This document shows positions 16,638-37,963 of a stretch of DNA of 41,690 nt, in pieces. A program made the translations under genes and the position numbers. This DNA comes from an uncultured Pseudomonadota bacterium (lineage in GTDB: Bacteria; Desulfobacterota; Syntrophorhabdia; Syntrophorhabdales; Syntrophorhabdaceae), in NCBI GenBank assembly GCA_937862865.1, contig CALMFJ010000087.1:1-41690 (forward strand), read 5' to 3'. The notes under the pieces were generated by a model. That model was not told the origin of the DNA. It did no database searches and saw only the letters and a list, made by a program, of their open reading frames with translations. Each line of letters begins with the position of its first letter. The stretch's first letter is position 1.

Positions 16638-17588
16638 CTAGGCATTTTGTCCACGGTGTTTTTCCATGAACTCGTTCATATCGGGGGGCACGGGCGCCTC
16701 GATCTTGACCGGGGCCCCGGTGACCGGGTGAACAAATTCTATACGGTATGCGTGGAGAAGAGGTCTCGCTGCCAATCTTTTTGCTTTTCTTCCATACGTC
16801 TCGTCACCGACGATCGGAAAACCAGCGTGGCTTAAGTGAACGCGTATCTGGTGCGTCCTCCCCGTTGCGGGATATGCCTCGATACAGGAGAACCCCTCGA
16901 GCCGCTCCAGGACCTTAAAGCCGGTGGTCGCATACCTGCCGCCGGAGCGCAGAACGGTCATCTTCTTCCTGTCCACCGGGTGGCGCCCGATATTCCCGTT
17001 GACGGTCAACACATCCCATGGCGGGGTTCCCTCAACAAGGGCCCGGTACGTCTTCCTGACATCCCTGTCCTTGAACAACCCCGATAATTTTTCCTGTGTC
17101 CGGGGATCCCGGGCAATCAGGATAACGCCCGTTGTCCCCTTATCCAACCGATGTACGATCCCCGGCCTCATTCCCGCCATCCCGTCGGTCCCGTTATTCG
17201 TGAAACGTGAAACGTGAAACGTGAAACCGGTCCTCTCCAGGTAACCCAGGACCGCGTTGACCAGTGTTCCCGAGCTATGTCCGAATGACGGGTGAACGAC
17301 CATATCCGCCGGCTTATTGATTGCCAGGAAATAATTGTCCTCATACAAAATGTTCAGGGGGACCCTTTCCGCCGCGAGACCGATCGGTTCGTCTTCCGGT
17401 ATCTCCCCCGAGATCTCGAGGCCCGCCTTGAGGCGCATTGCCGGCTTCGGCACCCTGCCGTCCACCCGGACGTGACCGCCTTCTATCATTTCTTTTATCT
17501 TCGTCCGCGTCAGGGACAGCTGTTCGGAAAGGAAGACATCAAGCCTGATATCGTTTTGCTCGCAGGTTATCGTGAAACTACGGGGCAT
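16638..17588 (-). CDS. rluD: RluA/RluD family 23S rRNA pseudouridine synthase
   Basis: Isomerises uridines, probably in helix 69 of 23S rRNA. The product is 316 residues: an S4 RNA-binding domain (about 13-65) and a catalytic domain with HRLDKGTTG, in which Asp149 is the nucleophile. GRTHQIRVHL and VGDETYG are also present. Between VLGYL and RPGIVHRLDK the loop is about ten residues longer than in typical family members. It contains FTFHVSRFT, encoded by a perfect fourfold repeat of CGTGAAA on the plus strand (17199-17226). The start overlaps the end of selA by 11 nt. The exact target site (RluD versus a paralogue) cannot be fixed from sequence alone. Confidence 0.9.
   Translation of the reverse strand: MPRSFTITCEQNDIRLDVFLSEQLSLTRTKIKEMIEGGHVRVDGRVPKPAMRLKAGLEISGEIPEDEPIGLAAERVPLNILYEDNYFLAINKPADMVVHPSFGHSSGTLVNAVLGYLERTGFTFHVSRFTNNGTDGMAGMRPGIVHRLDKGTTGVILIARDPRTQEKLSGLFKDRDVRKTYRALVEGTPPWDVLTVNGNIGRHPVDRKKMTVLRSGGRYATTGFKVLERLEGFSCIEAYPATGRTHQIRVHLSHAGFPIVGDETYGRKAKRLAARPLLHAYRIEFVHPVTGAPVKIEAPVPPDMNEFMEKHRGQNA
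17199..17226. repeat. Perfect 4 x 7-bp array inside rluD
   Basis: Four identical CGTGAAA units, 28 bp, lie wholly within the pseudouridine synthase reading frame and encode residues 121-130. As 28 is not a multiple of 3, the frame is kept only with flanking bases. Loss or gain of one unit would shift the frame ahead of the catalytic Asp. Confidence 0.9.
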
Positions 17589-18975
17589 CCGTGTAAACCG
17601 AGACTATTGCTTCGACAAGGTCCGCTTCATCGTGCGCAAGGACCGTCCTCATGTCGAATAGCAATCTTTCGTGTTCGATCCTCGCTATGACAGGGACCCG
17701 GCACTCTCTCAGATGCTTCTCGAACGCTGCGACGGTCATCGCCCGCGGGATGAGGGCTATCCCGGCCGATGGTATTGTCATATCGGGAAAGCTTCCGCCG
17801 CCCACTTCCGAATCTGTGTCGACGACAGATATGCCGGCACCCGGGCAACGCTTTTTGAGTTGTGCCGCCAGCCGGCGGGCCCTCTTTCGCAGGCCGCCCC
17901 CGGATTCGGATATCATCGCCATGGTGGGGATCTTCTGTGCAGCCGAGGCGGCATCGAGGTATAGAAGGAGGGTCGCTTCAAGGCCTGCCAGCGTGAACTT
18001 GTCGGGACGCAGGGCGCGTGTTACCGGATTGCGCTTTATGACATCCACGTACTCCTCTTTGCCGAGGATCATTCCCGCCTGGGGGGCACCCAGGACTTTG
18101 TCCCCGCTGAACGAGATCACATCGAAACCGGTCTTCAACTCCGCGGATATTATCGGCTCGCGTGTGTGGTCGAGGCCCTCGTAGGCGTGGAAAAACCCGC
18201 TTCCCGTGTCGAAATATGTCGGGATGCCGTATCGTGAGCCCAGCTCTACGAGCTCCTGCGACGAGGCCTCGTGAGTAAAACCGCGGATGCGGTAATTGCT
18301 CGTATGGGCCTTCATGATGAGGCCCGTGTTGTCCCCGATTGCGCGCTCGAAGTCCTCGATATATGTTCTGTTCGTCGTCCCGACTTCCCGTAAGACGGCC
18401 CCGCTTTTCTTCATGACGTCGGGTATTCTGAACGATCCGCCAATCTCTATGAGCTCGCCCCGCGAGATGATAACCTCTTTTCCCTCGGCGAGGGTATTGA
18501 GGACGAGGAAGACCGCCCCGGCGTTGTTGTTGACCACGAGGGCATCTCCGGCTGACGTCAGTCTTTTCAGGACCGATGTGCAATGGCCGTACCTGCTGCC
18601 GCGCGTTCCCTTTTCAAGGTTATATTCAAGGTTCGAATACCCTGTCGCCACTTTCATAATCGCCCTTACAGCCTCTTCGGCGAGCACGGACCTGCCGAGG
18701 TTTGTATGGATGATCACCCCTGTCGCATTGATAACGCGCTTGAGGCCGGGCTCCATGAGGGCCTGCGTCTGACGGGAAACCTCCTGTACGATCTGCTCGA
18801 CGCCCGGCACGGCGCTTTTCCGGCCGCCCTTGATCTCAACGCGCAGCGAATCCAGGTGTTCGCGCAGAACGTCCTTTAACAATGCTTCCGGAAAACGCGC
18901 CTCAAGCCTTTTGAATCCCGGGCTTTCGAGTATCATGTCGACCTTCGGTATCTTCCGCAACGGGTTGTCTGGCAT
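17578..18975 (-). CDS. selA: L-seryl-tRNA(Sec) selenium transferase
   Basis: PLP enzyme turning Ser-tRNA(Sec) into Sec-tRNA(Sec) with selenophosphate. The 465-residue length is normal. N-terminal RKIPKVDMILESP resembles the SelA N-terminal tRNA-binding domain. The core has VINATGVIIHTNLGRS (81-96), GSRYGHC, NNNAGAVFLVL, and the PLP lysine Lys293 in FSGDKVLGAPQAG. It lies 34 bp after the acyl-CoA synthetase and overlaps rluD. SelB, SelD and the Sec tRNA are not in the window, and I saw no gene here with an in-frame Sec UGA. The host is therefore expected to make selenoproteins elsewhere, such as formate dehydrogenases or hydrogenases. The Shine-Dalgarno is weak. Confidence 0.95.
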   Translation of the reverse strand: MPDNPLRKIPKVDMILESPGFKRLEARFPEALLKDVLREHLDSLRVEIKGGRKSAVPGVEQIVQEVSRQTQALMEPGLKRVINATGVIIHTNLGRSVLAEEAVRAIMKVATGYSNLEYNLEKGTRGSRYGHCTSVLKRLTSAGDALVVNNNAGAVFLVLNTLAEGKEVIISRGELIEIGGSFRIPDVMKKSGAVLREVGTTNRTYIEDFERAIGDNTGLIMKAHTSNYRIRGFTHEASSQELVELGSRYGIPTYFDTGSGFFHAYEGLDHTREPIISAELKTGFDVISFSGDKVLGAPQAGMILGKEEYVDVIKRNPVTRALRPDKFTLAGLEATLLLYLDAASAAQKIPTMAMISESGGGLRKRARRLAAQLKKRCPGAGISVVDTDSEVGGGSFPDMTIPSAGIALIPRAMTVAAFEKHLRECRVPVIARIEHERLLFDMRTVLAHDEADLVEAIVSVYTDAP

Positions 18976-23758: not shown

Positions 23759-25216
23759 TTATCCGAAAATTCCCACGGCCTTCTGTGCCATCACTATGAA
23801 AACCTTCGGGAAAATGCCCATGTACAGGAGGGCCAGTATGCATATGAGCATGACGAGCCCATACTGAGGGGCCCGGTCGGCTGCCGCGGACTCACCGACA
23901 GGTTCTTTGAAATACATGTACATCATCACCCTCAGGTAATAATATGCGGCCACGACACTGTTCAGAAAACCGATGATGGCAAGCCAGTAATACTGTGCCT
24001 TGACGGCGGTGCTGAATACGTAGAACTTACCCATGAACCCTGCGAGCGGCGGTACGCCGGCGAGCGACAGGAGAAAAATGCTCATGCACAGCGCTATGAA
24101 CGGATAGCGGGCGCCCAACCCTGCAAAGCTGTCGAGGTCGCTGCCGTTGTCACCCTTTTTCTGCATGACGATAACGGCCGTGAAGGCGCCGATATTCATG
24201 AAAGTGTATGCGGCAAGGTAATACAGCATGCTCGACGCCTGCGCCCTGTCCCCCGTTATAAAGGCCACGAGGATATAGCCCGCATGCGCTATACTGGAGT
24301 AGGCAAGCATCCTCTTGATATCACGCTGTACGAGCGCCGTGATGTTCCCTACCGTCATGGTGAGGACCGCCAGGATCCATATGATCTCCGACCAGCCGAA
24401 ATGGAACGGGATAAAAGCGGTGAAGAAAATGCGGATCAGGGCACCGAATGCCGCGGCCTTCACGCCCGTTGCCATGTACGCGGTTATCGAGGTCGGTGCT
24501 CCCTGATAGACGTCCGGCGTCCACATATGGAAGGGGACCGATGCGATCTTGAACCCGAAGCCGACAAGAAGCAAGCCCAGGCCGATGATAAACATGGTCG
24601 CGGAGAACGGCTGTTTCATGAGGAAATATCTTTTCAGTTCGGCCACATCGATGATACCGGTCGACCCGTAGATCATCGACATCCCGTACAGGAGAAAACC
24701 GGTTGCGAACGCACCGAGGAGGAAATACTTGAGGGCCGCTTCCACGGACGCGATGTCGCGCCTTAAGAGGCCGCACAGGATGTAGATCGAAAGCGACATC
24801 ACCTCGAGCCCGATAAAGATCGTGACGAAATGGTGCGACGAGGTCATGACCATCATCCCGAGCACGCCAAACATCAGGAGCGCATAATATTCGCCCCCGC
24901 CGATCTCTTCACGGTCGGCGTACCGCACCGACACAAGGGCCACCAGGGCCAGAATGATGAGGAACAGGCCCTTAAAGAAGGTCCCGTACGTGTCTATCGT
25001 GTAGAGCGCATTGAAGATATCGAGGTTTGTCCCCCACATGTTCATCGTGAAGACAAGCCCGAGCAGGGATCCGACTATGCAGAGCGCTCCGGAGATCTTT
25101 GACGCAACCGGGCCCTTCGTCAGGGCGCCGATGATAAGCAGGAGAAGCCCGAACCCGGTAAGTATGATCTCGGGCATTATCCATCTAAATTCGCTGGCAG
25201 GTATTAAAGCGTCCAT
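23759..25216 (-). CDS. nuoN: Complex I subunit NuoN
   Basis: Antiporter-like proton channel subunit of the membrane arm, 485 residues with about 14 helices. Family motifs include FVTIFIGLEVMSLSIYILCG with the TM5 glutamate, AALKYFLLGAFATGFLLYG with the TM7 lysine, and FKIASVPFHMWTPDVYQGAP. It is the last gene of the operon, as in most nuo clusters, and is closed by the terminator 25 nt downstream. The ATG lies 11 nt after the nuoM stop. Confidence 0.95.
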   Translation of the reverse strand: MDALIPASEFRWIMPEIILTGFGLLLLIIGALTKGPVASKISGALCIVGSLLGLVFTMNMWGTNLDIFNALYTIDTYGTFFKGLFLIILALVALVSVRYADREEIGGGEYYALLMFGVLGMMVMTSSHHFVTIFIGLEVMSLSIYILCGLLRRDIASVEAALKYFLLGAFATGFLLYGMSMIYGSTGIIDVAELKRYFLMKQPFSATMFIIGLGLLLVGFGFKIASVPFHMWTPDVYQGAPTSITAYMATGVKAAAFGALIRIFFTAFIPFHFGWSEIIWILAVLTMTVGNITALVQRDIKRMLAYSSIAHAGYILVAFITGDRAQASSMLYYLAAYTFMNIGAFTAVIVMQKKGDNGSDLDSFAGLGARYPFIALCMSIFLLSLAGVPPLAGFMGKFYVFSTAVKAQYYWLAIIGFLNSVVAAYYYLRVMMYMYFKEPVGESAAADRAPQYGLVMLICILALLYMGIFPKVFIVMAQKAVGIFG

Positions 25217-25227
25217 TAATGAGACCC

Positions 25228-26814
25228 CTATCTCGTCATATTCGTGTTCGTTGCTTCTGTTGCCACCTTTGCCGTGGCACCTGTATTCTGTTCGAGCATT
25301 CTGGCCTGGGCATTCCTGTTCTTGACGAGGCTCAAATACTCGGCGACCGATGTATCCATTTTATTGAAGAACATCTTCGGGTAAACACCCATCAAAATGA
25401 TAAAGAAGACCATGCAGCACAGGATGGTGATCTCACGGCCCTCAAGGTCTTTGAGCTCCCTGTTGGCATCCTTCGTGATCACACCGAACATGACCCGCTG
25501 GAACATCCACAGCATGTACACCGCGCCGAGGATGACGCCGGTCGTCGCAAGCACTCCATAGACCGTGTTCGCCTTGAACGCACCAAGGAGGATCAGGAAC
25601 TCACCGACAAATCCGTTCGTCCCCGGAAGGGCGATGGATGAAAGGGTTATGATCATAAAGAAGACAGCAAATATCGGCATGACCTTGGAGATCCCGCCGA
25701 AATCCGATATCATCCTCGTGTGCCGTCTCTCGTATATCATGCCGACGATAAGAAAGAGGCCGCCGGTCGAGATGCCATGGTTGAGCATCTGGTAGATACC
25801 GCCCTGTACGCCCTGCATGTTGAAGGCGAAGATACCGAGCATGACGTAACCGAGATGGCTTACGCTCGAGAACGCGATCAGCCGTTTCAGGTCGGGCTGC
25901 ATCATACTGACGATCGCTCCGTAGATGATACCGATGACAGCCAGTATCGACATGAGCGGGACCGCATCGATGGCGGCAGCCGGGAAGAGGGGGATCGCAA
26001 ACCGGATAAAGCCGTATGTACCCATCTTCAGGAGGACGCCGGCAAGGATGACACTGCCCGCGGTGGGCGCCTCGGTATGAGCATCAGGCAGCCAGGTGTG
26101 CACCGGGAACATCGGCACCTTGATGGCGAAGGACAGGGCGAACGCCGCGAATAGCCAGTACTGCTTGGCTATCGGTATGCTCGCCTTGTAGAGTTCCATC
26201 ACGTTGAACGTGTATATGCCGCTCTGGTTATAATAGTAGAAATACAGGTAAAGGATGGCGACGAGCATGAGAACGCTGCCTGCCATCGTGAAGAGGAAGA
26301 ACTTGATCGCAGCGTAAATCCGGTTCGGGCCGCCCCATATGCCGATGAGAAGGTACATCGGTATGAGCATCAGTTCCCAGAAGATATAGAAGAGTACCAG
26401 GTCGAGCGCGCAGAGGGTGCCGATCATGGCCGTTTCAAGGAAAAGGAACGTAATGTAGTATTCCTTGACCTTGTCTTCGATGGCCTTCCACGAGCACAGC
26501 ACGCATATGACGGTGAGGAACGTGGTGAGCAGCACGAGAAGAAGGCTGATGCCGTCTATGCCGAGATAGTAGCCGATACCCCAGTCGGGGAACCAGTCGG
26601 CCTTTTCGACAAACTGCATTCCCTTGGCCGTATTGCTGAACTTGTAGAAGAGCGGAACGGACGCAAAGAGCTCGAACAGGGAGAATATCAGCGCGCCGGC
26701 CTTGATGAGAAGGGTATTCTCCCGCTTGACAAAAAGCAGGAGCACCGCCCCCAGCAGAGGGAAGAATATCAGGAATGTAAGTATTGGTATACCGAAAACT
26801 GAGAACTCCGTCAT
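25228..26814 (-). CDS. nuoM: Complex I subunit NuoM
   Basis: Antiporter-like proton channel of the membrane arm, 528 residues, about 14 helices. Diagnostic sequence: IFWELMLIPMYLLIGIWGG with the TM5 glutamate, AAIKFFLFTMAGS with the TM7 lysine, and HTWLPDAHTEAPTAGSVILAG in TM8. The C-terminal tail is Thr/Ala-rich and hydrophilic. It lies 10 nt after nuoL. Key proton-path residues are all in place, so this subunit should pump. Confidence 0.95.
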   Translation of the reverse strand: MTEFSVFGIPILTFLIFFPLLGAVLLLFVKRENTLLIKAGALIFSLFELFASVPLFYKFSNTAKGMQFVEKADWFPDWGIGYYLGIDGISLLLVLLTTFLTVICVLCSWKAIEDKVKEYYITFLFLETAMIGTLCALDLVLFYIFWELMLIPMYLLIGIWGGPNRIYAAIKFFLFTMAGSVLMLVAILYLYFYYYNQSGIYTFNVMELYKASIPIAKQYWLFAAFALSFAIKVPMFPVHTWLPDAHTEAPTAGSVILAGVLLKMGTYGFIRFAIPLFPAAAIDAVPLMSILAVIGIIYGAIVSMMQPDLKRLIAFSSVSHLGYVMLGIFAFNMQGVQGGIYQMLNHGISTGGLFLIVGMIYERRHTRMISDFGGISKVMPIFAVFFMIITLSSIALPGTNGFVGEFLILLGAFKANTVYGVLATTGVILGAVYMLWMFQRVMFGVITKDANRELKDLEGREITILCCMVFFIILMGVYPKMFFNKMDTSVAEYLSLVKNRNAQARMLEQNTGATAKVATEATNTNMTR

Positions 26815-26824
26815 GTACGCACCT

Positions 26825-28807
26825 TTACAAGATTCTCGAAATAAGATAACCGATCACAACGATCGCACCAAGGATGACTGCAAATGCATAACCCTGCACC
26901 ATACCGGTCTGCACCCTGCGGATGATGCCGCCAATCCCCGCGAGCAGCGAGGCCATCCCGTTCACGATACCATCTATGATCATCTCGTCGAAGAAGTCCT
27001 TACAGAACCTGCCGAGCCTCAGAAGGTTCCGTATGAATAAGAAATCGTACAATTCATCGACAAAATATTTATTGTGAACAAGCGTAAAGAGCCCGTGGAA
27101 CTTCTCGACGAACTTCTTCGGGAGGTTCGGGTTCTTCACGTAGAATAGCCAGGCGATGAAGATGCCGAGAAGCCCGATGATGATGGCCCCTATCATGAGC
27201 TGCATCTCGGCGCTGCTCTCGGCGCCCGCGGCCCCGCCCGAGGATGCGAAGGCGGTGCTGATGATATTGAAGCCCCCGGCGTGCGCTGCTGCGGGAGCAT
27301 GGTGGCCGAATACGGGCTCAAGCCATTTCTCGATCTGGTTGGAACCGCCGAGCAGATGCGGAACGCCGACATAGCCGCCGATAACACTCAGCACGGCAAG
27401 GACCATGAGCGGAACGGTCATCACCTTTGGAGACTCGTGGATATGGTGCTTCACCTCTTCGTCGGCCCTGCATTCGCCGTGGAAGGTGCTGAAGAACATC
27501 CGGAACATGTAGAATGCGGTCATGCCCGCGGTCAAGGCACCGACAGCCCAGAACCAGAAGCTGTTATACCTGCTGAACGCCATCCAGAGTATCTCGTCCT
27601 TGCTGAAAAACCCCGAGAAGCCCGGCACGCCTGCGATCGCGAGACACGCGAGCAGTGTCGTCCAGTACGTGATGGGGGTCTTCTTCCGGAGCCCGCCCAT
27701 CTTCCTCATGTCGAGCTCGCCGCTCATGGCATGCATGACGGAACCGGCGGCGAGAAAGAGCAGGCCCTTGAAGAACGCGTGGGTCATAAGGTGGAAGATA
27801 CCGGCGGCATATGCGCCCGCGCCCACGCCCACGAACATGTAGCCGAGCTGGCTGACCGTCGAATACGCGAGGACCCGCTTGATGTCATACTGGGCGGTAC
27901 CGATCGTCGCCGCGAAAAATGCGGTCGCAAGGCCGACGATGGTAACAACGAGAAGGGTCGTCGGGGCAAGGACGTACAGGAAATTGAGCCGCGCGATCAT
28001 GTAGACGCCGGCCGTGACCATCGTGGCGGCGTGGATAAGCGAGCTGACCGGCGTCGGGCCTTCCATTGCATCGGGCAGCCAGACATAAAGGGGGATCTGC
28101 GCTGATTTACCCGTCGCACCCACGAAGAACAGGAGTGTGATGACAGTCGCAAGGCCCGGCCCGATCAGGTGGGCATTGGCCTGGAGCTCGGAGAACTTCA
28201 ATGTCCAGACGCCCTGGGAGCCAAGATACCCGACAAGTGTGAACACGCCGAGCAGGAAGCCGAAATCGCCGATCCTGTTCACGATAAATGCCTTCTTGCC
28301 GGCATTCGATGCCGAGTCCTTCTCGTACCAGAAACCGATCAGCAGGTACGAACAGAGGCCGACGCCCTCCCACCCGACGAACATAAGCAGTACGTTGTCG
28401 CCGGTAACGAGGGTCAGCATCATGAAAACGAAGAGGTTGAGGTAGCAGAAGAAGCGCCGGAACCCGGGATCGTCATGCATGTAACCCACCGAATAAATGT
28501 GGATGAGTGAGCCGACGCCCGAGACGACGAGACACATGATGATCGACAGGGCGTCTATCCTGAAGCCTATCGTTGTCTTGAAATCACCCGAGACGATCCA
28601 GTCGAAAACGGTCTTTTCAAATACCCTGCTTTCAGGCGCCATCTGCAGAAACTGTATAAAGATGGTCGCAGATACAGCGAACGACGCTATAACGGAAAGG
28701 CATGCAACCCAGGCGGTGAGAGTCTTCGGAAAGCGTATCCCGAGAAGGCCGTTGATTAAGAACCCGATCGCGGGAAATGCCGGAATAAGCCATATAAGGT
28801 CAGCCAT
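26825..28807 (-). CDS. nuoL: Complex I subunit NuoL
   Basis: Distal antiporter-like subunit, 660 residues. It has the conserved GWEGVGLCSYLLIGFWYEK (TM5 Glu), NAGKKAFIVNRIGD, and PLYVWLPDAMEGPTPVSSLIHAATMVTAG. The C-terminal part after about residue 490 holds the long lateral helix and last TM helix typical of NuoL. A His/Ala/Gly-rich linker (HHAPAAAHAGG) sits before it. The length is a little above the E. coli protein (613). Its start is 14 nt after the nuoK stop. Confidence 0.95.
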   Translation of the reverse strand: MADLIWLIPAFPAIGFLINGLLGIRFPKTLTAWVACLSVIASFAVSATIFIQFLQMAPESRVFEKTVFDWIVSGDFKTTIGFRIDALSIIMCLVVSGVGSLIHIYSVGYMHDDPGFRRFFCYLNLFVFMMLTLVTGDNVLLMFVGWEGVGLCSYLLIGFWYEKDSASNAGKKAFIVNRIGDFGFLLGVFTLVGYLGSQGVWTLKFSELQANAHLIGPGLATVITLLFFVGATGKSAQIPLYVWLPDAMEGPTPVSSLIHAATMVTAGVYMIARLNFLYVLAPTTLLVVTIVGLATAFFAATIGTAQYDIKRVLAYSTVSQLGYMFVGVGAGAYAAGIFHLMTHAFFKGLLFLAAGSVMHAMSGELDMRKMGGLRKKTPITYWTTLLACLAIAGVPGFSGFFSKDEILWMAFSRYNSFWFWAVGALTAGMTAFYMFRMFFSTFHGECRADEEVKHHIHESPKVMTVPLMVLAVLSVIGGYVGVPHLLGGSNQIEKWLEPVFGHHAPAAAHAGGFNIISTAFASSGGAAGAESSAEMQLMIGAIIIGLLGIFIAWLFYVKNPNLPKKFVEKFHGLFTLVHNKYFVDELYDFLFIRNLLRLGRFCKDFFDEMIIDGIVNGMASLLAGIGGIIRRVQTGMVQGYAFAVILGAIVVIGYLISRIL

Positions 28808-28821
28808 TTGAAACCCCTTCT

Positions 28822-29133
28822 TTAGCCTTTAAGCAGATTAAAATCGTCTACGTGCACTGTGCCCTTGAGCCTGAATATGAGCACGAATATAGCAAGGCCC
28901 ACCGCCGCCTCGGCCGCCGCAACGGCCATGATGAAGATGACGAAGATGGTCCCGTCAAGCGAATTCAGGAAATTGCCCGAGGTGATAAGGCTTAAGTTCG
29001 CGGCGTTCAGCATGAGCTCGATGCACATGAAGATCACGATGGCATTGCGCCGCGTGATGACGCCGATTGCTCCGATAGTGAAGAGCACTGCTGACAACAG
29101 ATAATAGAGGTCCTGCGGTATGTCGGGCAACAT
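28822..29133 (-). CDS. nuoK: Complex I subunit NuoK
   Basis: Small membrane-arm subunit, 103 residues, three helices. It has the two key glutamates, one in [13 protein letters not shown] and one in [11 protein letters not shown], which lie on the central proton axis. The ATG overlaps the nuoJ stop as TAATG, a sign of translational coupling. Confidence 0.95.
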
Positions 29134-29675
29134 TATCTCTCCTGTTCGTTTCTTTTCCTCGCAAGAAGCACCGCGCCGACGATGCCGACGAGAAGAAGTA
29201 TCGAGGCGACTTCGAATGCGAATGCATACTTGCCGTAAAGCAGGGCGCCAACCGCCCGTGTATTGCCTATCTCGGCAAGCTTCTGGGCAGTGTAGATGCC
29301 ATGCTGTCCTGCGTCGCTATACGTGTAAACCCCTGCGAGGATCTGCACGAAAAGTATCAGTGTGATGAAGCCCCCGATGAATTTCGGGAAGGATTTTTTG
29401 CGGCCCCACTGTGCGCCCCATTCGAGGTGGATGAGCATGATCACGAAAAGGACGAGCATCATGATCGCCCCTGCGTACACCATGACCTGGGCGACGGCTA
29501 TGAAGGTCGCGTTCAGCGTGACATAAAGGACCGCGACAGAAAAAAATGTCACGATCAGCCATAATGCGCTGTGGATCGGGTTTTTCCGTGTTACCATCAT
29601 CAGGGATGAACCCACAGCCGTAAGGGCCATCACAACAAAGATAAACCATTTAAATCCGAGTCCAATGCCGATCAT
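29133..29675 (-). CDS. nuoJ: Complex I subunit NuoJ
   Basis: Membrane-arm subunit, 180 residues, five helices. The TM3 segment [18 protein letters not shown] is the NuoJ signature, including the pi-bulge region involved in coupling. It overlaps nuoI by ATGA at its start and nuoK by TAATG at its end. Confidence 0.94.
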
Positions 29676-30097
29676 TTTTTATCCTCATACATCGAAAGGA
29701 GTTTGTTCGTATCCAGTACGAAATCTTCTTTCCGGTAATGTGCCTGTTCGTAATCCTTGCCGAGATTGATCGCATTGACCGGGCATGCGTCCTGGCAGAA
29801 ACCGCAGAAGATGCAGCGCCAGGGGTCGATCTCGTATTTGATCGGATAGCGCTTCCCGTCGAACTTCTCCCCTATCTCCAGCGTGATGCACTGGTTGGGG
29901 CAGGCCGCCACGCACAGGCCGCAGCCGACGCAGGCCGTTTCGCCCGCCTCGTTCTTCTTGAAGTAATGTATACCGCGCCACCTGTCCGGCACCTCGTGTT
30001 TCTTTTCAGGGTACTGGTACGTGATCGTCTTCGTAAAGACCCGTGAAAAGGTCAGCCGAAGGCCTTTGAGGAGAGGAGTGACTATTGTGTCTTTCAT
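29672..30097 (-). CDS. nuoI: Complex I subunit NuoI (2 x [4Fe-4S] ferredoxin-like)
   Basis: Peripheral-arm subunit carrying clusters N6a and N6b, 141 residues. Two motifs are complete: CVGCGLCVAACP and CIFCGFCQDACP, each with a further distal Pro-linked Cys. YPEKKHEVPDRWRGIHYF precedes the first cluster and is typical of the family. It passes electrons from NuoG towards NuoB. The ATG overlaps the nuoH stop by one base. Confidence 0.95.
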   Translation of the reverse strand: MKDTIVTPLLKGLRLTFSRVFTKTITYQYPEKKHEVPDRWRGIHYFKKNEAGETACVGCGLCVAACPNQCITLEIGEKFDGKRYPIKYEIDPWRCIFCGFCQDACPVNAINLGKDYEQAHYRKEDFVLDTNKLLSMYEDKK

Positions 30098-31095
30098 TAC
30101 AGCACCCCCATTGCCACAAGGGCGGCGGTTACGACAACGTTAAGAAGGGTCAGCGGCAGAAGGAACTTCCATCCGAAATGCATGATGTGGTCGTATCTGG
30201 CCCGCGGGTATGTCCCCCTTTCCCAGATAAAGAAGAAGATGATCGCGAAGACCTTGATGATGAACCACAGCGGCCCGAGATATGCGGGGCCGGGGCCCAT
30301 CCAGCCGCCGAGGAAGAGCGTCGTGACGATCGCCGCGACCGTGAACATGTGGGCATATTCCGCAATCATGAACGTGGCAAATTTCATACTGCTGTACTCA
30401 ATATTGAAACCGCATGCCAGCTCGCTTTCCGATTCCGGCATGTCGAACGGTGTCCTGTTGATCTCGGCGAGGCCTGCCACGAGGTAAAAGATGAAGCCGA
30501 AGGGGTACTTGGCAACAAACCAGAGCCCGGCCTGGGCATTGACGATCTCGCTTAAGTTGATAGACCCGGCAATGATGATCGTCCCGATGACGGCAAGGCC
30601 GAGGGCGCACTCGTAGCTGATCATCTGGGCAGCGGCACGCAGGGCGCCGAGGACGCCGTACTTGTTCCCGGAAGCCCATCCGCCGAGCACGACCCCGTAT
30701 TCGCCAAGGGTTGCAAGGGCAAGAAGGTAGAGAAGCCCGGTGTCGAGGTCGGCAATGACGAGCTTGACCTGCTGCCCGAAAAGCTCGACGGTCGGTCCGA
30801 ACGGGATAACGGCGAACATGCTGAGCGCCGCAAACAGCGAGATGCCGGGCGCAAGCACGTACAATGTCTTGTCCGCCTCATCGGGGATGATGTCTTCCTT
30901 GAAGAAGGACTTCACGCCGTCCGCAATGGGCTGGAGAAGGCCGAAGGGACCGACCCTGTTAGGCCCGGGCCTCACCTGCAGACGGCCGAGGAGCTTCCTT
31001 TCGAGCAGAGTGGTGTATGCCACGAAACCCATAAGAACGCACACCACGACTATGTTCTTGACCACCATTATACCTAACGTGATAAGCTGTTCCAT
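30097..31095 (-). CDS. nuoH: Complex I subunit NuoH
   Basis: Membrane subunit forming the quinone entry channel with NuoD and NuoB, 332 residues, eight helices. It has ERKLLGRLQVRPGPNRVGPFGLLQPIADGVK and the acidic loop FDMPESESELACGFNIEYSS. WERGTYPRARYD near the C-terminus is also conserved. These show a full quinone chamber, so the complex should reduce a quinone rather than act as a ferredoxin-hydrogenase relative. Confidence 0.96.
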   Translation of the reverse strand: MEQLITLGIMVVKNIVVVCVLMGFVAYTTLLERKLLGRLQVRPGPNRVGPFGLLQPIADGVKSFFKEDIIPDEADKTLYVLAPGISLFAALSMFAVIPFGPTVELFGQQVKLVIADLDTGLLYLLALATLGEYGVVLGGWASGNKYGVLGALRAAAQMISYECALGLAVIGTIIIAGSINLSEIVNAQAGLWFVAKYPFGFIFYLVAGLAEINRTPFDMPESESELACGFNIEYSSMKFATFMIAEYAHMFTVAAIVTTLFLGGWMGPGPAYLGPLWFIIKVFAIIFFFIWERGTYPRARYDHIMHFGWKFLLPLTLLNVVVTAALVAMGVL

Positions 31096-31098
31096 GCT

Positions 31099-33492
31099 TT
31101 AACCTTTTTTGACCGTCACTGAGATGTGTTTGGCATATCCATCGGTCAGATTCAAAATGTCCTGCCTGTTCTTCAACATCCTGTATTCCAGCACGCCCTT
31201 TTTCAAATCTTCTTTGATCGTCGCAGGGCACTGCACTTTTCCATGATCGGATTCGAGGACGACCTGGCCCCCGTCCGCTACCCCCAGGGCCTCGGCGTCT
31301 TCCCGCGAGATGAAAAGCTTATCGCCGGCGATAGCAGGGTTCTGGAGATACGCCATTTTCGTGTAAACGGCCTTTCCCGCCAGGTGGTGGTGGAAAAAGA
31401 CGTTCTTGAGCACAAGGGTGAACGGTTTCCGGGATGTACCGGCGCCTGCCCTGACCGGCGCGGCCTTTGCCGTGCCGCTCACAGGCTTGAGGCTTGCCCG
31501 CCCGAGCTCGTCGGTCACGATGAAATCCTTTTCGAAAACAACCGTTGAAGCCTCGGCCTCATCCTTGTACAGCCCTCCGCCGAGACGGTCGAGGAGCATT
31601 CTTAAGAACTCGAACCCCGGCGACGCCTTGCCTTCGCCCCTTCCGACCCTGCGTACATAGCCGTCCTCGGCAATACAGCTGCCCTCTTTCCGGGCGAAAC
31701 TGCCGGTCGGGACGACAACGTGGGCATACGCCGACGTGTCGGTTGCGAACATGTCGCACACCGCAAGGAACGCCTTGTTCTTCAGTGCCTCACCGACGTC
31801 CCTGCCGGCAAGATAATGGAACGGATCGTCCTCGTAGATGAAAAGGCCGTCCGCCTTGCTCAAAACGTCTGACGGGGACACGGCGTCAGGGAGGAACGCC
31901 AGGGTACCGACGGCATTTGACTGAAGCGCGGTCGGCATGACGGCGCCTGTCTTGTGGACTCCCTTTACAATACAGAGATTGAGGAGGGCCTCCAGACTCC
32001 CGGCGCTTTCGCTTATGCCCGTTCCGAATATGACCGCAACCGAGGACGCGCCCGAGAGAAGCTTGTAAAACTTATCAACGCTCTTCTCGTCCGCACCGCT
32101 TGCAGCCGCAGCATCCGCCTTGCCTCCCGCAAGTCCCTCGATGCTGCCTGCATCCGGGTCGTTCTTCTTGTCAGCGATGAGCTGGGCGGCGATGCCGTTG
32201 AAGAATGCCGCATCCGAGCCCGGCGCGACCTTCACCCAGGCGTCGCTTATACGCGTCAGGTTGACGGGTGACGGGTCGACGACGGCCACTTTTGCCCCGG
32301 CAGTTTTCACGGCTTCCCGGACCTTGTTCGCAAGGAGGTGGTTATTCCCGAGAAGGTCCGCACCGGCAACCACAATGAGGTCGCACTTTTTCAGCGCTTC
32401 ATACTCATAGGGGTATGGGATACCCATCCGGCGCATCGTGTCAAGCACTATGCCTGTATGGTAATACCCGGCCGTGCCGAAGGCGGTCTTTGAAAAGGCC
32501 CTTGCGATCTGCGTCACCATATAGGCCTCTTCGTTGGTTGCGCGGGGAGACACGATGAAACCGATCGTCTTGCCTTCTTTATCGAGTTTGGCGAGCGCCG
32601 ACGCGGTCGCCTCGACGGCCTCCGCGAGCGTCGCCCCGGCAGCCTCCGTTCCCTGTTTGACCGTCGGTGCGGCAAGCTGCGCTTCATTGTTGGCGAAATC
32701 GTATCCGAAACGGCCCATCACGCAGAGCGAGCCCTTGTTCGGGGCAAGCGAGGGGTTCGTGACGACCTTTGTTATAAACCTGTCCTGGTACACGTCGAGG
32801 TTGAGCGAGCACCCGAAACCGCAGTGGGGGCAGGTCGTTGTCTGCCGCTTCGTCTGCCACTTCCTGCTCTTCTGGGGGCTCTCCTGCTCTGTGAGGGCGC
32901 CGACGGGGCACATGAAAAGGCATTCGCCGCACGAGATGCAGTCCTCGGGGCTTGTCGGCTTCATTGCGGCCTCGATGCCGGTCCCGGCGAGCTCAAGGAC
33001 CTTGCGGCCCGACACCTCACGGCACGCATGGACGCACCGCAGACAGAGGACGCACCTGTCCTCGGCATACCTGATCATCGCCGTGGCGTACGGCTTTACG
33101 GTCTTCGGCTCTCTTTCCGCCTCGAGGTCGACTCTTTCTATCCTGTGCTCGAAGGCAAGGTCCTGGAGACGGCACTCGCCGCCGGAATCACAGTGGGGGC
33201 ATTCCAGGGGGTGATTAATGAGGAGGAGCTTAAGATATTGCTGGCGCATCGCGAAGAGCTTATCCGATTGGGTCGTGACCGATATGCCCTCGACAGCGGT
33301 GGTCGTGCACGACGCCATGGGTTTGTCGTACCCTTCGATCTCAACGATGCAGAGCCTGCAGGAGCCAATGGGAAGAAGGTTCTCGTGGTAGCACAGTGTC
33401 GGGATATAAATGTCGTTCTCCCGGGCAGCTTCGAGTATTGTCTTGCCTTCCTCGGTCTTTATCTCTTTGCCGTCTATCTTAAATGTTATCAT
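31099..33492 (-). CDS. nuoG: Complex I subunit NuoG
   Basis: Large peripheral-arm iron-sulfur subunit, 797 residues. The N-terminal [2Fe-2S] domain has Cys34, Cys45, Cys48 and Cys62. HPLECPHCDSGGEC (from 94) is the N5-type His/Cys motif. Two ferredoxin-like clusters follow: CVLCLRCVHAC (147-157) and CISCGECLFMC (185-195). The molybdopterin-oxidoreductase-like domain begins with CPHCGFGC (221-228) and a fourth Cys in GSLCVMG, so cluster N7 or its equivalent is kept. No active-site Cys or Sec of a true formate dehydrogenase was seen. The ATG at 33492 has AAAAGGG 7 nt upstream; a TTG at 33513 is less likely. The paired ferredoxin domain beside the SfrB-like gene makes NuoG resemble SfrA of Geobacter as well as normal NuoG. 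Confidence 0.9.
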   Translation of the reverse strand: MITFKIDGKEIKTEEGKTILEAARENDIYIPTLCYHENLLPIGSCRLCIVEIEGYDKPMASCTTTAVEGISVTTQSDKLFAMRQQYLKLLLINHPLECPHCDSGGECRLQDLAFEHRIERVDLEAEREPKTVKPYATAMIRYAEDRCVLCLRCVHACREVSGRKVLELAGTGIEAAMKPTSPEDCISCGECLFMCPVGALTEQESPQKSRKWQTKRQTTTCPHCGFGCSLNLDVYQDRFITKVVTNPSLAPNKGSLCVMGRFGYDFANNEAQLAAPTVKQGTEAAGATLAEAVEATASALAKLDKEGKTIGFIVSPRATNEEAYMVTQIARAFSKTAFGTAGYYHTGIVLDTMRRMGIPYPYEYEALKKCDLIVVAGADLLGNNHLLANKVREAVKTAGAKVAVVDPSPVNLTRISDAWVKVAPGSDAAFFNGIAAQLIADKKNDPDAGSIEGLAGGKADAAAASGADEKSVDKFYKLLSGASSVAVIFGTGISESAGSLEALLNLCIVKGVHKTGAVMPTALQSNAVGTLAFLPDAVSPSDVLSKADGLFIYEDDPFHYLAGRDVGEALKNKAFLAVCDMFATDTSAYAHVVVPTGSFARKEGSCIAEDGYVRRVGRGEGKASPGFEFLRMLLDRLGGGLYKDEAEASTVVFEKDFIVTDELGRASLKPVSGTAKAAPVRAGAGTSRKPFTLVLKNVFFHHHLAGKAVYTKMAYLQNPAIAGDKLFISREDAEALGVADGGQVVLESDHGKVQCPATIKEDLKKGVLEYRMLKNRQDILNLTDGYAKHISVTVKKG

Positions 33493-33505
33493 TCCCGTAC
33501 CCTTT

Positions 33506-35455
33506 TCAGCCAACTGCGATCATGCCTATTCTATAACAGCGAAGGCACCGTGATGCCTCCGTGATCGCCTCATCGGTCCGGAACCCTTCCTCGAACTCTT
33601 CGAACGTCCATTTCCTGACCTCGGGGGCCATATGCCGAAGCTTCATTCTCGGGTGGTCTCCCAGGAAACCGACATTCTCGTTCTTGTCGTAAACCTTGAG
33701 TTCACCGAAGAATTTCACGTATTTCTCGCTTTCCCTGGCCTTCGGCTTCTCGCCTCTCAAATACTCATCGATCTTCCAGGCTGCCCGCTTTCCGTTGCCG
33801 CATGCGCGGACGAGGACATCGGGGCCCGTTTCACAGTCGCCGGCCGAGAATATGCCGGGGATGTTGGTTGCGAACGTCTCCTGATCGACCAGAAAGGTGT
33901 TCCATTTTGTAATGGCAAAATCTTCTTTTTTCTCAAGGAACGACCAGTCGATGGCCTGACCGATAGCCGGTATCAGGATGTCGGTCTCGATCACAAACTC
34001 CGAGTTCGGGACGGGGACCGGTCTTCTCCGGCCGCTCGCGTCCGGTTCGCCGAGTTCCATCCGGATGCACTCGACGCCGACGACCTTGCCGTCCTTTTCC
34101 AGGATGCGCGACGGGTTGCACAGGTAGTGGAACTCAACGCCTTCTTCCTCCGCCTCGCGAATTTCGACGGGGTCGGCAGGCATTTCCTTTTTCGTCCTTC
34201 TGTACACAAGGTGCACGTCGGGCTTGCCGATACGGAACGATGAACGGACGCAGTCCATTGCAACGTTGCCGCCGCCGACAACGACGACCCTTTTCCCCTC
34301 GGGATACGGGTCTTTGCCGTTATTTATGTCGAGGAGATATTTTACGCCGGCGATGAACCCGCGGTAACCCGCATCTTCGCCGTTGACGCCCATAGGCTGC
34401 GATGTATGGGCGCCCACGCCGATAAAGACCGCATCGAAGTCCTTGCGGATCTGATCGAGGGTAATGTCCCTGCCCAGCTCGACACCATACTTCATGGTAA
34501 CGCCGAACGATTCGACGAACTTGCCCTCAACGTCGAGAACCGTCCTTGGCAGACGGTAATCGGGGATGCCGACCGCGGCCATTCCGCCCGGTTCGCCCAG
34601 CTTCTCGAAGACCGTGACGGGATAGCCCATCCGGGCGAGGTAATATGCGCAGGAAAGCCCGGCGGGGCCGGCGCCGATAACGGCAACCTTTTTCGATTTA
34701 TCTATCTTCGGCACGATGTCGCGCTTGACATCCTTATCGATCTCCCAGTCCGCCACAAACCTCTTGAGGCTTTTTATCGAAATAGCCTCATCGATGTTCG
34801 CACGCCGGCAGTTCGATTCGCAGGGCCGCACGCAAACCCGCCCTAAGGTGCCCGCCATGCAGGCGGCCTCGCGGACCTTTTTGAGCGATTCGGTCATCCT
34901 TCCTTCGCTTATCGCCTCGACGTACGCCGGGATATCGAGCTGCGACGGACAGACGCTCATGCACGGGGCGGTCACGGAGATCCTGTAATCGCCGGGTTTC
35001 GCCTTGCGCCCTTCGGCCACCGACCGGTCAAACTCCGTGCCGAAGAATTCCATGGCCTGAAGGAGCGGCACAAAACCGGTCTGCCCGATCTGGCACTTCG
35101 ACCCGTCCTTGATCTGGGCGGCAATGGTGCGTATCTTGTCGAGGTCTTCTTTTTTACCCTTGCCGTCGGCGATCCCCTGAAGCGTCCCCAGGATGACCTT
35201 GCTTCCTATCCTGCAAGGTATGCAGCGGCCGCAGGACTCTTTCTGCACGGCCTCGGCATACTTCACGGACATGTCGATAATATCCACGTTCTCGTCACAG
35301 AGGATAATACCGTCCCACCCCATGAACGCCTTTACGGGAAGACCATTCTCGAACTCTCCGGGGAGCTTGACCTTCGGGGCTTCGAAAGACTCGCGGGCCT
35401 TGCCCCTGTTGTCTGTTATCTCACCCTGCCAGGAACTAAAGATCACGTCAGCCAT
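33506..35455 (-). CDS. SfrB-like NuoF-N3/GltD fusion, electron-input subunit replacing NuoEF
   Basis: A 649-residue fusion in the place of nuoE-nuoF. Residues 1-150 match the C-terminal iron-sulfur part of NuoF: N3 ligands Cys75, Cys78, Cys81 in ESCGRCIPCRIG and Cys121 in KCQIGQ. The NuoF FMN/NADH Rossmann part is missing. Residues 160-240 form a GltD-type double [4Fe-4S] domain: Cys165, Cys169, Cys199, Cys208, Cys212, Cys216. Then come FAD-binding VAVIGAGPAGLSCAYYLA (257-274) and NAD(P)H-binding VVVVGGGNVAMD (390-401). LVYRRTKKEMPA (416-427) carries the arginine pair that binds the 2'-phosphate of NADPH in GltD and NfnB. A late CLRC pair is at 637-640. The opening VIFSSWQGEITDNRGKA matches what I recall of Geobacter SfrB. 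AAGG lies 6 nt before the ATG. Inferred role: NAD(P)H oxidation feeding NuoG. Confidence 0.88.
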   Translation of the reverse strand: MADVIFSSWQGEITDNRGKARESFEAPKVKLPGEFENGLPVKAFMGWDGIILCDENVDIIDMSVKYAEAVQKESCGRCIPCRIGSKVILGTLQGIADGKGKKEDLDKIRTIAAQIKDGSKCQIGQTGFVPLLQAMEFFGTEFDRSVAEGRKAKPGDYRISVTAPCMSVCPSQLDIPAYVEAISEGRMTESLKKVREAACMAGTLGRVCVRPCESNCRRANIDEAISIKSLKRFVADWEIDKDVKRDIVPKIDKSKKVAVIGAGPAGLSCAYYLARMGYPVTVFEKLGEPGGMAAVGIPDYRLPRTVLDVEGKFVESFGVTMKYGVELGRDITLDQIRKDFDAVFIGVGAHTSQPMGVNGEDAGYRGFIAGVKYLLDINNGKDPYPEGKRVVVVGGGNVAMDCVRSSFRIGKPDVHLVYRRTKKEMPADPVEIREAEEEGVEFHYLCNPSRILEKDGKVVGVECIRMELGEPDASGRRRPVPVPNSEFVIETDILIPAIGQAIDWSFLEKKEDFAITKWNTFLVDQETFATNIPGIFSAGDCETGPDVLVRACGNGKRAAWKIDEYLRGEKPKARESEKYVKFFGELKVYDKNENVGFLGDHPRMKLRHMAPEVRKWTFEEFEEGFRTDEAITEASRCLRCYRIGMIAVG

Positions 35456-35463
35456 AATCAACC

Positions 35464-36636
35464 TTATTTATCTATTTCGCCGAGGACTATGTCGATGCTG
35501 CCTATCGCTGCGACAACGTCGGCGACCAGCGATCCATGGATCATCTTCGATATCGAGCCGAGGTTCAAAAATGAAGGCGGGCGGATCCTCACGCGGTAGG
35601 GATTCTCCGTACCGTCGCTCACGATGTAGAACCCGAGCTCACCTTTCGATGACTCTATGGAGGCATACGCCTCACCCTTAGGCGGCCTGAAGCCGTCCGT
35701 CATCAACTTGAAATGGCGGATAAGCGCCGCCATGTCCTGCGCCACCTCTTCCTTTTCCGGGGGGACGTACGCCGGGGCATCCGCCTTGATCGGCCCTTCG
35801 GGAAGCTTGTCGATCGCCTGCTGCACTATCCGTATCGACTGCCTCATCTCTTTAAGCCTCACGAGGTACCGGTCGTACACGTCACCCTTCGTTCCGAGAG
35901 GTATCTCGAAATCGAAGTCTTCATAACTGGAGTACGGATAGGCCTTGCGGACGTCGTAGTAGACGCCGGAGGCACGGAGCACAGGTCCCGTTACGCCGTA
36001 CGTGATCGCGTCATCGGCGCTCAAGGGACATACGCCTTTTAAACGTCCTTTCCATATCACGTTCTCTGTGAGCAGGGTCTCGTATTCGTCTATCCTGCCC
36101 GGAAGCTCTTTTATCAGCGCCTGCGCCTCGGCAAGGAAACCTTCCGGAAGCTCTTCGCGCAGGCCCCCAAAACGTATATAATCGGGCATCAGCCGTGCGC
36201 CCGAGACCTTTTCCAGGAGCTTCAGGCACGATTCCCTTTCACGGAACCCGTAGAAGAGCACCGTCATGGCGCCCATGTCGAGGGCGTGGGTCGACACCCA
36301 CAGGAGGTGCGCGGCAATCCGCTGCAGCTCGCTCAGCATGACCCGGATGTACTGGGCCCGCTTCGGGATCTCGACGCCGATAAGTTTCTCGACAGCGAGG
36401 CAGTAGGCGAGGTTGTTGGACATGCCGCTCGTGTAGTCCAGCCTGTCGGTCAGCGGCTGGCCCTGCCAGTACGTCCTGTTCTCGAAGATCTTTTCTATCC
36501 CGCGGTGGAGGTACCCGATGTCAGGGGTACTTGAAACGATCGTCTCGCCGTCGAGCTCAAGGACCACCCTCAGAACCCCGTGCGTTGCCGGGTGCTGAGG
36601 CCCCATGTTGATAGTCATGTACTTTGTGTCAGCCAT
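35464..36636 (-). CDS. nuoD: Complex I subunit NuoD (49-kDa homologue)
   Basis: Quinone-site subunit related to the large subunit of [NiFe] hydrogenases, 390 residues and not fused to NuoC. INMGPQHPATHGVLR holds the quinone-contacting His region. DIGYLHRGIEKIFE, DYTSGMSNNLAY and RPPSFLNLGS are all present. The nickel-site cysteines of hydrogenases are absent, as expected. The ATG follows the nuoC stop with no gap; the next gene begins 8 nt downstream. Confidence 0.96.
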   Translation of the reverse strand: MADTKYMTINMGPQHPATHGVLRVVLELDGETIVSSTPDIGYLHRGIEKIFENRTYWQGQPLTDRLDYTSGMSNNLAYCLAVEKLIGVEIPKRAQYIRVMLSELQRIAAHLLWVSTHALDMGAMTVLFYGFRERESCLKLLEKVSGARLMPDYIRFGGLREELPEGFLAEAQALIKELPGRIDEYETLLTENVIWKGRLKGVCPLSADDAITYGVTGPVLRASGVYYDVRKAYPYSSYEDFDFEIPLGTKGDVYDRYLVRLKEMRQSIRIVQQAIDKLPEGPIKADAPAYVPPEKEEVAQDMAALIRHFKLMTDGFRPPKGEAYASIESSKGELGFYIVSDGTENPYRVRIRPPSFLNLGSISKMIHGSLVADVVAAIGSIDIVLGEIDK

Positions 36637-37128
36637 TTATGCCTTCTCCAGGTCCACCACGAAACGCTTGTCGAAATCCTTGCCTTCGAGGGGAAACTCC
36701 TTGCGCAGGGGATGGCCCTCGAAGTCGTCGGGGTTATAGATCCTGCGCAGGTCGGGATGGTTAGCGAACGGCACGCCGAACATGTCATAGATCTCCCTTT
36801 CGAGGAAATCGGCAGCAGGCCACAGGTCGCTTGCCGTCTCTATGCCTTCGTCGCCGCATCTCGTCTTCACCGTGATCCGTGCGTTTGTCTTCTGTGAGCG
36901 GAGGATGTACACGATCTCGAATCGCTCTTCCCCGTCATTACGATCGATAGCAAACATGTCGACGAGCATGTTGAAACCAAGGTCGCGGTCATATCTGCAA
37001 TGATCGAGGGTCTCACGGATGGTAGCCTTGTCGACCATTGCGCTCGGCTCGCCGGGAGGTGCCGGTACGATCGTTATCCCGTCGGCCTTGCCGGAGAGTA
37101 TATCCAAATATTCTTTATTATCGCTCAT
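36637..37128 (-). CDS. nuoC: Complex I subunit NuoC (30-kDa homologue)
   Basis: Peripheral-arm structural subunit, 163 residues. The signature region [41 protein letters not shown] is complete. The start at 37128 overlaps the nuoB stop as ATGA; longer reading upstream is just the nuoB antiframe and is rejected. Confidence 0.94.
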
Positions 37129-37619
37129 GCGCTCTTCCCGGACAGTGATATCAAAGGCCTGTCTTTGATGGTCTCTTTCTGGATCTTTTTCTGCAGCTCT
37201 ATAATACCGGCCAGCAATGCCTCCGGCCGCGGAGGACATCCGGGGATGTACACGTCGACGGGGATTATCTGGTCGACCCCCTGAACGACGCTGTACGACC
37301 TGAAGATGCCGCCCGATGACGCGCAGGCGCCGTACGCGATGACCCATTTCGGGTTCGGCATCTGCTCATAGATCCTGCGTACAACGGGGGCCATCTTCTT
37401 CGACAGCGTTCCGGCCACGATCATAAGGTCTGACTGCCTGGGCGACGGGCGGAAAACCTCCGCGCCAAACCGGGCGATATCATATTCCGCGCAGCTTGCG
37501 ACCATCATTTCGAGGGCGCAGCAGGCAAGGCCGAACGTGACGGGGAAAAGAGAATTTTTTCGGCCCCAGTTGATGAGCCAGTCAACGGTCGATACCAGTA
37601 CGTTATTTTCTATTCCCAT
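37125..37619 (-). CDS. nuoB: Complex I subunit NuoB (cluster N2)
   Basis: Carries the terminal [4Fe-4S] cluster N2 that reduces quinone, 164 residues. Ligands are visible as the tandem Cys pair in LACCALEMM, the Cys in GACASSGG and the Cys in PGCPPRPE. The start at 37619 overlaps nuoA by 10 nt. [19 protein letters not shown] and [14 protein letters not shown] are typical. Confidence 0.96.
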
Positions 37620-37963
37620 TCCAATGCACCTTTTTTCCAGATATAGATATATCCAACGAAAAGAATGAACACAAAGATGAGCATCTCTATGAAGCCGAAG
37701 AGCCCGAGCCTCCGGGTGATCACCGCCCACGGGTACAGGAAAATGATTTCAATGTCGAACACGAGAAAGAGCATGGCGACGATGTAATAACGGATGGTCA
37801 TTATCCTGCGGGTCGGTCCGCTTGTTGTCATGCCGCATTCATAGGGGGCAAGTTTTGTTCTGGATTTCGTCCTGTGCCCGAGAAAATGTGAAAAACCGAT
37901 TATGACGGCGGCAATAATCCCGGCAAGGCAGAACATGACAAAGATCGCTACATATTCGAGCAT
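37610..37963 (-). CDS. nuoA: Complex I subunit NuoA
   Basis: Three-helix membrane subunit, 117 residues, first gene of the operon. The signature [10 protein letters not shown] with the Cys of the TM1-2 loop is present, then [28 protein letters not shown] lies 8 nt before the ATG. The 5' leader is estimated at about 90 nt from the predicted start of transcription. Confidence 0.95.

What the first reader, a model, noticed from the sequence alone, without database searches (positions are those of the whole stretch)
33506..35455. Complex I operon in which NuoE and NuoF are replaced by an SfrB-like NuoF-N3/GltD fusion
All other subunits (A-D, G-N) are present, in order and with intact key residues. 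The slot for nuoE-nuoF holds one gene with only the N3 iron-sulfur part of NuoF joined to a GltD/NfnB-type FAD and NAD(P)H module. The FMN-NADH fold is gone. The YRR motif in the second nucleotide-binding domain suggests NADPH. FAD plus extra [4Fe-4S] centres could even permit bifurcation or reverse flow. Related input subunits are known from Geobacter SfrAB, a soluble enzyme; here the module is inside a quinone-linked pump operon.
Basis: partly seen in the sequence, partly recalled or inferred. Interest (0 to 1): 0.8.

Follow-up and report, generated by a model that had tools for sequence, protein, structure and literature searches.

The report
Complex I with swapped electron-input module
In this uncultured anaerobic bacterium the respiratory proton pump complex I has lost its usual NADH-reading parts and carries a different flavin enzyme in their place, which probably feeds it with NADPH (or runs backwards to make NADPH), and related bacteria add a formate-oxidising subunit at the same spot.

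Summary
Window 33506-35455(-) encodes a 649-aa fusion of the N3 iron-sulphur domain of NuoF with a GltD/NfnB flavoprotein. It sits in the EFG slot of an otherwise complete nuoABCD-[x]-GHIJKLMN operon, with no nuoE or nuoF. The genome (2.64 Mb, 96.5% complete) has one NuoD; its four NuoE/NuoF pairs lie in three [FeFe]-hydrogenase operons and one FDH-like operon. It is not a one-off: 52 loci from Desulfobacterota, Methylomirabilota and Nitrospinota have the fusion beside nuo genes, none with a canonical nuoE/nuoF nearby. Phylum genomes with a top-scoring canonical NuoF lack this arrangement. The N3 and GltD-domain cysteines and the GxGxxA...YRR motif are invariant in 41 relatives (one N3 Cys in 40 of 42). 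The partner NuoG is not canonical either: it groups with SfrA/FdhA-type proteins. In 18 nuo loci, outside the window's own clade, the NuoG gene is a selenocysteine FdhA (CARLUHSS). Best reading: the whole EFG slot was taken over by an SfrAB/FdhA-type module, giving a predicted NADP(H):quinone pump, and in relatives a formate/NADP(H):quinone pump. Docking, NADPH use and direction are untested; bifurcation has no positive support. No held paper describes it; the nearest is Nuo-Bfu.

The parts
33506..35455 (-). SfrB-like fusion (NuoF-N3 domain + GltD/NfnB-type [4Fe-4S]/FAD/NAD(P)H module), in place of nuoE-nuoF
   Evidence: AlphaFold model mean pLDDT 89.6
31099..33513 (-). nuoG of SfrA/FdhA type: N1b, N5 (His), N4 plus a second [4Fe-4S] (8-Cys motif C154-C202), N7, degenerate molybdopterin domain without catalytic Cys/Sec. 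Start is TTG 33513 or ATG ~33492
35464..36636 (-). nuoD (TIGR01962 580 bits, over cut-off); the only NuoD in the genome
36637..37128 (-). nuoC (Complex1_30kDa); ORF is open further upstream
37125..37730 (-). nuoB ORF (true start inside; N2 cysteines [17 protein letters not shown] present)
37610..37963 (-). nuoA
30097..31095 (-). nuoH
29672..30097 (-). nuoI with two CxxCxxCxxxCP motifs (N6a/N6b)
29133..29675 (-). nuoJ
28822..29133 (-). nuoK
26825..28807 (-). nuoL
25228..26814 (-). nuoM
23759..25216 (-). nuoN

Best explanation
The operon encodes a complex I in which the NADH-input module NuoEFG has been exchanged for an SfrBA/FdhA-type module: an SfrB-like subunit in place of NuoE+NuoF and an SfrA/FdhA-type NuoG. 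Predicted path: NAD(P)H (probably NADPH) -> FAD of the GltD part -> its two [4Fe-4S] centres -> N3 -> N1b, N4, N5 of NuoG -> N6a/N6b (NuoI) -> N2 (NuoB) -> menaquinone at NuoD/NuoH, coupled to ion pumping by NuoHLMN. In a syntrophic anaerobe it could also run in reverse, using the ion gradient to push electrons from menaquinol to NADP+. Shown: genes, domains, cluster and nucleotide-binding motifs, conserved place in the operon, absence of another input module tied to a second complex I. Inferred: assembly into one complex, NADPH preference, quinone type, direction. In several relatives the NuoG gene is a selenocysteine formate dehydrogenase, so there the same pump probably takes electrons from formate as well; the window's own NuoG has lost that site.
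For: Operon position D-[x]-G/H kept in 52 loci of Desulfobacterota, Methylomirabilota and Nitrospinota, none with canonical nuoE/nuoF in the stretch held. One NuoD in the genome, and the NuoE/F homologues lie in Hyd and FDH-like operons. 45 of 297 phylum genomes have a NuoF over the curated cut-off and none of them is among the 22 genomes checked to have the fusion in nuo (chance about 0.02 if genomes were independent, which they are not). N3 Cys 77/80/123 and all seven GltD-domain Cys invariant in 42 sequences, Cys83 in 40. GxGxxA and Y420-R421-R422 invariant and matching NfnA/StnC/NfnB sequences that bind NADP(H). NuoG of these operons forms one group with SfrA/FdhA, separated from canonical NuoG by a branch with support 100. 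SfrB, NuoG and NuoD trees show largely the same subgroups, as expected if inherited together.
Against: No biochemical data. No complex could be modelled, so contact of N3 with N1b is assumed by homology. Standalone SfrB-SfrA and SfrB-FdhA gene pairs exist without nuo genes, so the pair can work as a separate soluble enzyme. In G024 no nuoG lies in the operon; its nearest full-length NuoG-like gene is a Sec FdhA about 120 kb away. YRR indicates but does not prove NADPH.
Confidence: 0.7

Rival explanations
1. Two separate enzymes share one operon: an 11-subunit complex I-like pump (NuoABCDHIJKLMN, fed by ferredoxin) and a soluble SfrAB-type NADPH oxidoreductase made of the fusion and 'NuoG'.
For: 11-subunit pumps without NuoEFG are common in strict anaerobes (PMC5165239, PMC11238625); SfrB-SfrA/FdhA pairs without nuo occur; in some Syntrophaceae NuoG/FdhA lies upstream of nuoA rather than next to the fusion.
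Against: The pair sits between nuoD and nuoH, the EFG slot of 14-subunit operons, in distant lineages; translational overlap with nuoG; no other NuoG close to the NuoG model is found besides a Sec FdhA fragment on C155.
Confidence: 0.17
2. NuoE/NuoF made from one of the hydrogenase or FDH-like operons also plug into this complex, and the fusion is an extra subunit.
For: Four NuoE/NuoF pairs exist in the genome.
Against: All are fully placed in HydABC or FDH-like/Nfn operons with their own NuoG/HydA partners; the fusion already carries N3, the only contact of NuoF with NuoG's clusters.
Confidence: 0.05
3. The input module bifurcates or confurcates (NADPH plus ferredoxin), as in Nuo-Bfu or NfnAB.
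For: GltD/NfnB-type FAD is the bifurcating flavin in NfnAB; the extra [4Fe-4S] motif in NuoG could be a ferredoxin port.
Against: Single flavin; no NfnA-like partner in the operon; no BfuB B2-B5 clusters; the Glu/Gln cluster ligand of NfnB/DPD is an invariant Lys.
Confidence: 0.08

Closest known systems
SfrAB, NADPH oxidoreductase of Geobacter sulfurreducens (Kaufmann and Lovley 2001; Coppi et al. 2007, cited in PMC9888536, PMC3543383)
   Same: SfrB-type fusion plus SfrA/FdhA-type partner, adjacent genes; window fusion in the same clade as standalone SfrB-SfrA pairs, incl. a named Desulfuromonadaceae (L079)
   Different: SfrAB is described as a soluble enzyme with no nuo context; here the pair occupies the EFG slot of a nuo operon
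Nuo-Bfu of Geobacter (PMC9304861)
   Same: A complex I whose canonical NuoEFG is exchanged for another NuoEFG-related input module
   Different: Nuo-Bfu keeps NuoE/NuoF-like BfuBC with FMN and extra clusters and is proposed to use NADH plus ferredoxin; the fusion has no FMN domain and no NuoE
StnABC / NfnABC transhydrogenases (PDB 8oh5, 9bov, 9n5u; PMC7483475)
   Same: GltD module coupled to NuoG-like Fe-S domains; best structural matches of the model, 9bov_A Z 39.1 over 469 residues
   Different: There GltD is fused into the NuoG-like chain and NuoE/NuoF are kept; soluble
11-subunit complex I-like enzymes (Desulfitobacterium PMC11238625, Thermodesulfovibrio PMC5165239)
   Same: nuoABCDHIJKLMN without canonical NuoEFG
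   Different: No input module in the operon at the EFG slot

Membership tests
Respiratory complex I (14-subunit NuoA-N) | NuoABCDHIJKLMN core with N2, N6a, N6b | tested here: met
   NuoD over curated cut-off
Respiratory complex I (14-subunit NuoA-N) | NuoE and NuoF with FMN/NADH fold in the operon | tested here: not met
   only N3 remains, no NuoE
Respiratory complex I (14-subunit NuoA-N) | Canonical NuoG (TIGR01973 over 470 bits) | tested here: not met
   329 bits; tree places it with SfrA/FdhA type
SfrAB-type NADPH oxidoreductase | N3 + GltD fusion (SfrB) | tested here: met
   reference SfrB genes were recognised by architecture and neighbourhood, no named Geobacter sequence was compared
SfrAB-type NADPH oxidoreductase | Adjacent NuoG/FdhA-like alpha subunit (SfrA) | tested here: met
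   NuoG groups with SfrA/FdhA against canonical NuoG
SfrAB-type NADPH oxidoreductase | Soluble, not part of a membrane complex | not testable with these tools
   Operon context argues against it
GltD/NfnB flavoproteins | Fer4_20 + FAD + NAD(P)H Rossmann domains, GxGxxA..YRR | tested here: met
GltD/NfnB flavoproteins | Eight cluster ligands including Glu/Gln | tested here: not met
   Seven Cys invariant, the Glu/Gln position is invariant Lys233 by alignment to recalled DPD numbering
Bfu family (Nuo-Bfu) | BfuB with FMN domain and clusters B2-B5 | tested here: not met
   No FMN domain in the fusion; definition from PMC9304861
Formate dehydrogenase FdhA | Catalytic Sec/Cys in CAR(L/V)(U/C)H | tested here: not met
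   Window NuoG reads GTAGYYHTGIVL there; met in 18 related nuo loci

The most novel reading that the evidence does not exclude
A family of complex I pumps with two substrate entries, formate at a selenocysteine FdhA in the NuoG position and NADP(H) at an SfrB-like flavoprotein in the NuoEF position, links formate, NADP(H) and the quinone pool to the ion gradient in Desulfobacterota and Methylomirabilota; the window holds a branch that lost the formate site and keeps only NADP(H).
Probability: 0.45. Interest if true: 0.85.

Novelty: new variant of a known kind. Interest (0 to 1): 0.7.

Why it matters
Complex I is held to be built from a pump and exchangeable input modules, but few natural exchanges besides ferredoxin, F420H2 and Nuo-Bfu forms are described. 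This is a whole-EFG exchange spread over many genera, with a conserved gene order, a built-in NADP(H) flavoprotein and, in relatives, a formate dehydrogenase in the NuoG position. It would change energy budgets of syntrophic aromatic and fatty-acid degraders, where coupling of NADP(H), formate and menaquinone by reverse electron transport is an open question, and genome annotation at present labels these operons as incomplete or NADH-dependent complex I.

Tried and rejected
Plasmid collection: no close relative. Literature: ten searches found no paper on an SfrB-like subunit inside a nuo operon, nor on Sec FdhA in the NuoG slot; the library lacks most subscription journals, and two reviews on complex I evolution (PMC6194058, PMC3144371) are not held, so prior description cannot be excluded. 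Foldseek/VIA lists are filled by the GltD part (one search says residues outside 163-609 are barely tested), so the N3 domain rests on PF10589 and sequence matches, not on the fold search. NuoG model was poor in its Fe-S half (mean pLDDT 73) and was not used. Origin from a HydB-GltD fusion by loss of the FMN domain was considered: such fusions exist but lie outside the SfrB clade in an unrooted tree with weak inner support, so direction is open. The mutual exclusion of canonical NuoF and nuo-borne fusion is not corrected for relatedness; Geobacter-like NuoF fall below the curated cut-off.

Full report
Observation. The gene at 33506-35455(-) starts 8 bp after the nuoD stop and its stop overlaps the first possible nuoG start. 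It holds the NuoF N3 domain (PF10589), the GltD cluster domain (Fer4_20) and a Pyr_redox_2 module. NuoF models match only with their last columns. nuoABCD and nuoGHIJKLMN flank it in order. AlphaFold2 gives a confident model, mean pLDDT 89.6; the GltD part matches NfnABC/StnABC chains best, 9bov_A Z 39.1, 469 residues at 1.8 A.

Genome. The host is a member of Syntrophorhabdales by its nearest named relatives, for example Syntrophorhabdus sp. PtaB.Bin047 at 87%; this is inferred from relatives. The assembly is 2.64 Mb, 96.5% complete, 172 contigs. It has one NuoD. NuoF-like genes other than the fusion number four, each with a NuoE-like neighbour. Three lie on contig C13 in HydABC-type [FeFe]-hydrogenase operons, one of them with HydB fused to GltD (1017 aa); one lies on C88 beside a NuoG/FdhA-like protein and an NfnAB pair. 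Identification of these neighbours is by reading the translations. Contig breaks mean a missed gene is possible but unlikely.

Distribution. A scan of 84,980 species genomes and a sample of 297 genomes of the phylum gave 52 loci (31 and 21; some may be the same organism in both sets) in which a full-length fusion lies beside nuo genes. None has a canonical nuoE or nuoF in the stretch held; remaining nuoF matches are the fusion itself or 22% hits. Nitrospinota have the order fusion-nuoG-nuoABCD..., several Syntrophaceae place NuoG/FdhA upstream of nuoA. Nine full-length loci of the first set and several of the second lack nuo neighbours. On the NuoD tree the label SfrB-nuo needs at least two changes, with Nitrospinota apart, so the exchange probably happened more than once, though long branches meet there.

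Motifs. In 42 family sequences Cys77, 80, 123 are invariant and Cys83 is kept in 40; Cys167, 171, 210, 214, 218, 639, 642 are invariant, as are Gly396/398, Ala401 and Tyr420-Arg421-Arg422; Lys233 stands at the Glu/Gln ligand position. The cluster cysteines 639 and 642 lie at the C-terminus, as a circular permutation relative to NfnB. YRR is shared with StnC, NfnB and NfnA sequences. NADPH is therefore likely, not shown.

NuoG. The partner has an 8-Cys ferredoxin motif, N7 and a molybdopterin domain. Many canonical NuoG of the phylum lack the second Cys set but some have it, so the motif alone does not separate them; the tree does, with support 100 between 28 canonical and 69 SfrB-associated sequences. 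In 18 nuo loci the frame is interrupted by a single TGA in the context DHCARLUHSS, the catalytic motif of Sec formate dehydrogenases, and resumes to about 900 aa. Two more nuo loci have Cys there, one with the following His changed. Other branches, including the window's, have lost it (Ser in some Syntrophaceae, unrelated residues here). Reading TGA as Sec is inferred from motif conservation; the window genome itself has SelA (17578-18975) and a separate Sec FdhA fragment on C155.

Mechanism. Cofactor order follows from homology: NAD(P)H-FAD-[4Fe-4S]-[4Fe-4S]-N3-N1b-N4-N5-N6a-N6b-N2-quinone. Direction is open. In a syntroph, reverse flow from menaquinol to NADP+ would supply the NADP(H)-linked hydrogenase or FDH; this is inference.

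Literature. SfrAB is known as a soluble NADPH oxidoreductase tied to acetate metabolism (PMC9888536, PMC3543383 citing Coppi 2007). Nuo-Bfu (PMC9304861) is the nearest described exchange of NuoEFG. 11-subunit pumps without NuoEFG are known (PMC5165239, PMC11238625). No held paper describes the present arrangement.

Noticed in passing
L057, L058, L066, L067, L072, L073, L076, L078, L141, L145, L146, L156, L158, L159, L162, L163, L169, L174 (NuoG ORF): NuoG in these nuo loci is a selenocysteine formate dehydrogenase-like protein with an in-frame TGA in DHCARLUHSS
   Followed up: partly
L044:4222-7275 (genome contig C13) and L206-L214, L218: HydB (NuoF) fused to a GltD module, about 1020-1060 aa; in the window genome beside HydA and HydC, in G010 beside a Sec FdhA: probably NADP(H)-linked hydrogenase or FDH
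   Followed up: partly
L070:5162-7114, L071:10001-11953: The same fusion without nuo or nuoG, next to etfBA and a membrane Fe-S oxidoreductase
   Followed up: partly
L140 (G024): nuoABCD-fusion-nuoHIJKLMN without any nuoG; full-length NuoG-like Sec FdhA about 120 kb away on the same contig
   Followed up: partly
L153 and L221 (G153): nuoHIJKLMN lies about 2.3 kb upstream of a standalone sfrB-sfrA pair, without nuoABCD matches nearby
   Followed up: no
L137, L142, L144, L147, L149, L150: One Cys of the 8-Cys motif of NuoG/SfrA is replaced by Asp
   Followed up: no
window 5142-7580 (-): Membrane H+-pyrophosphatase (PF03030)
   Followed up: no
window 17578-18975 (-): SelA, selenocysteine synthase
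   Followed up: no
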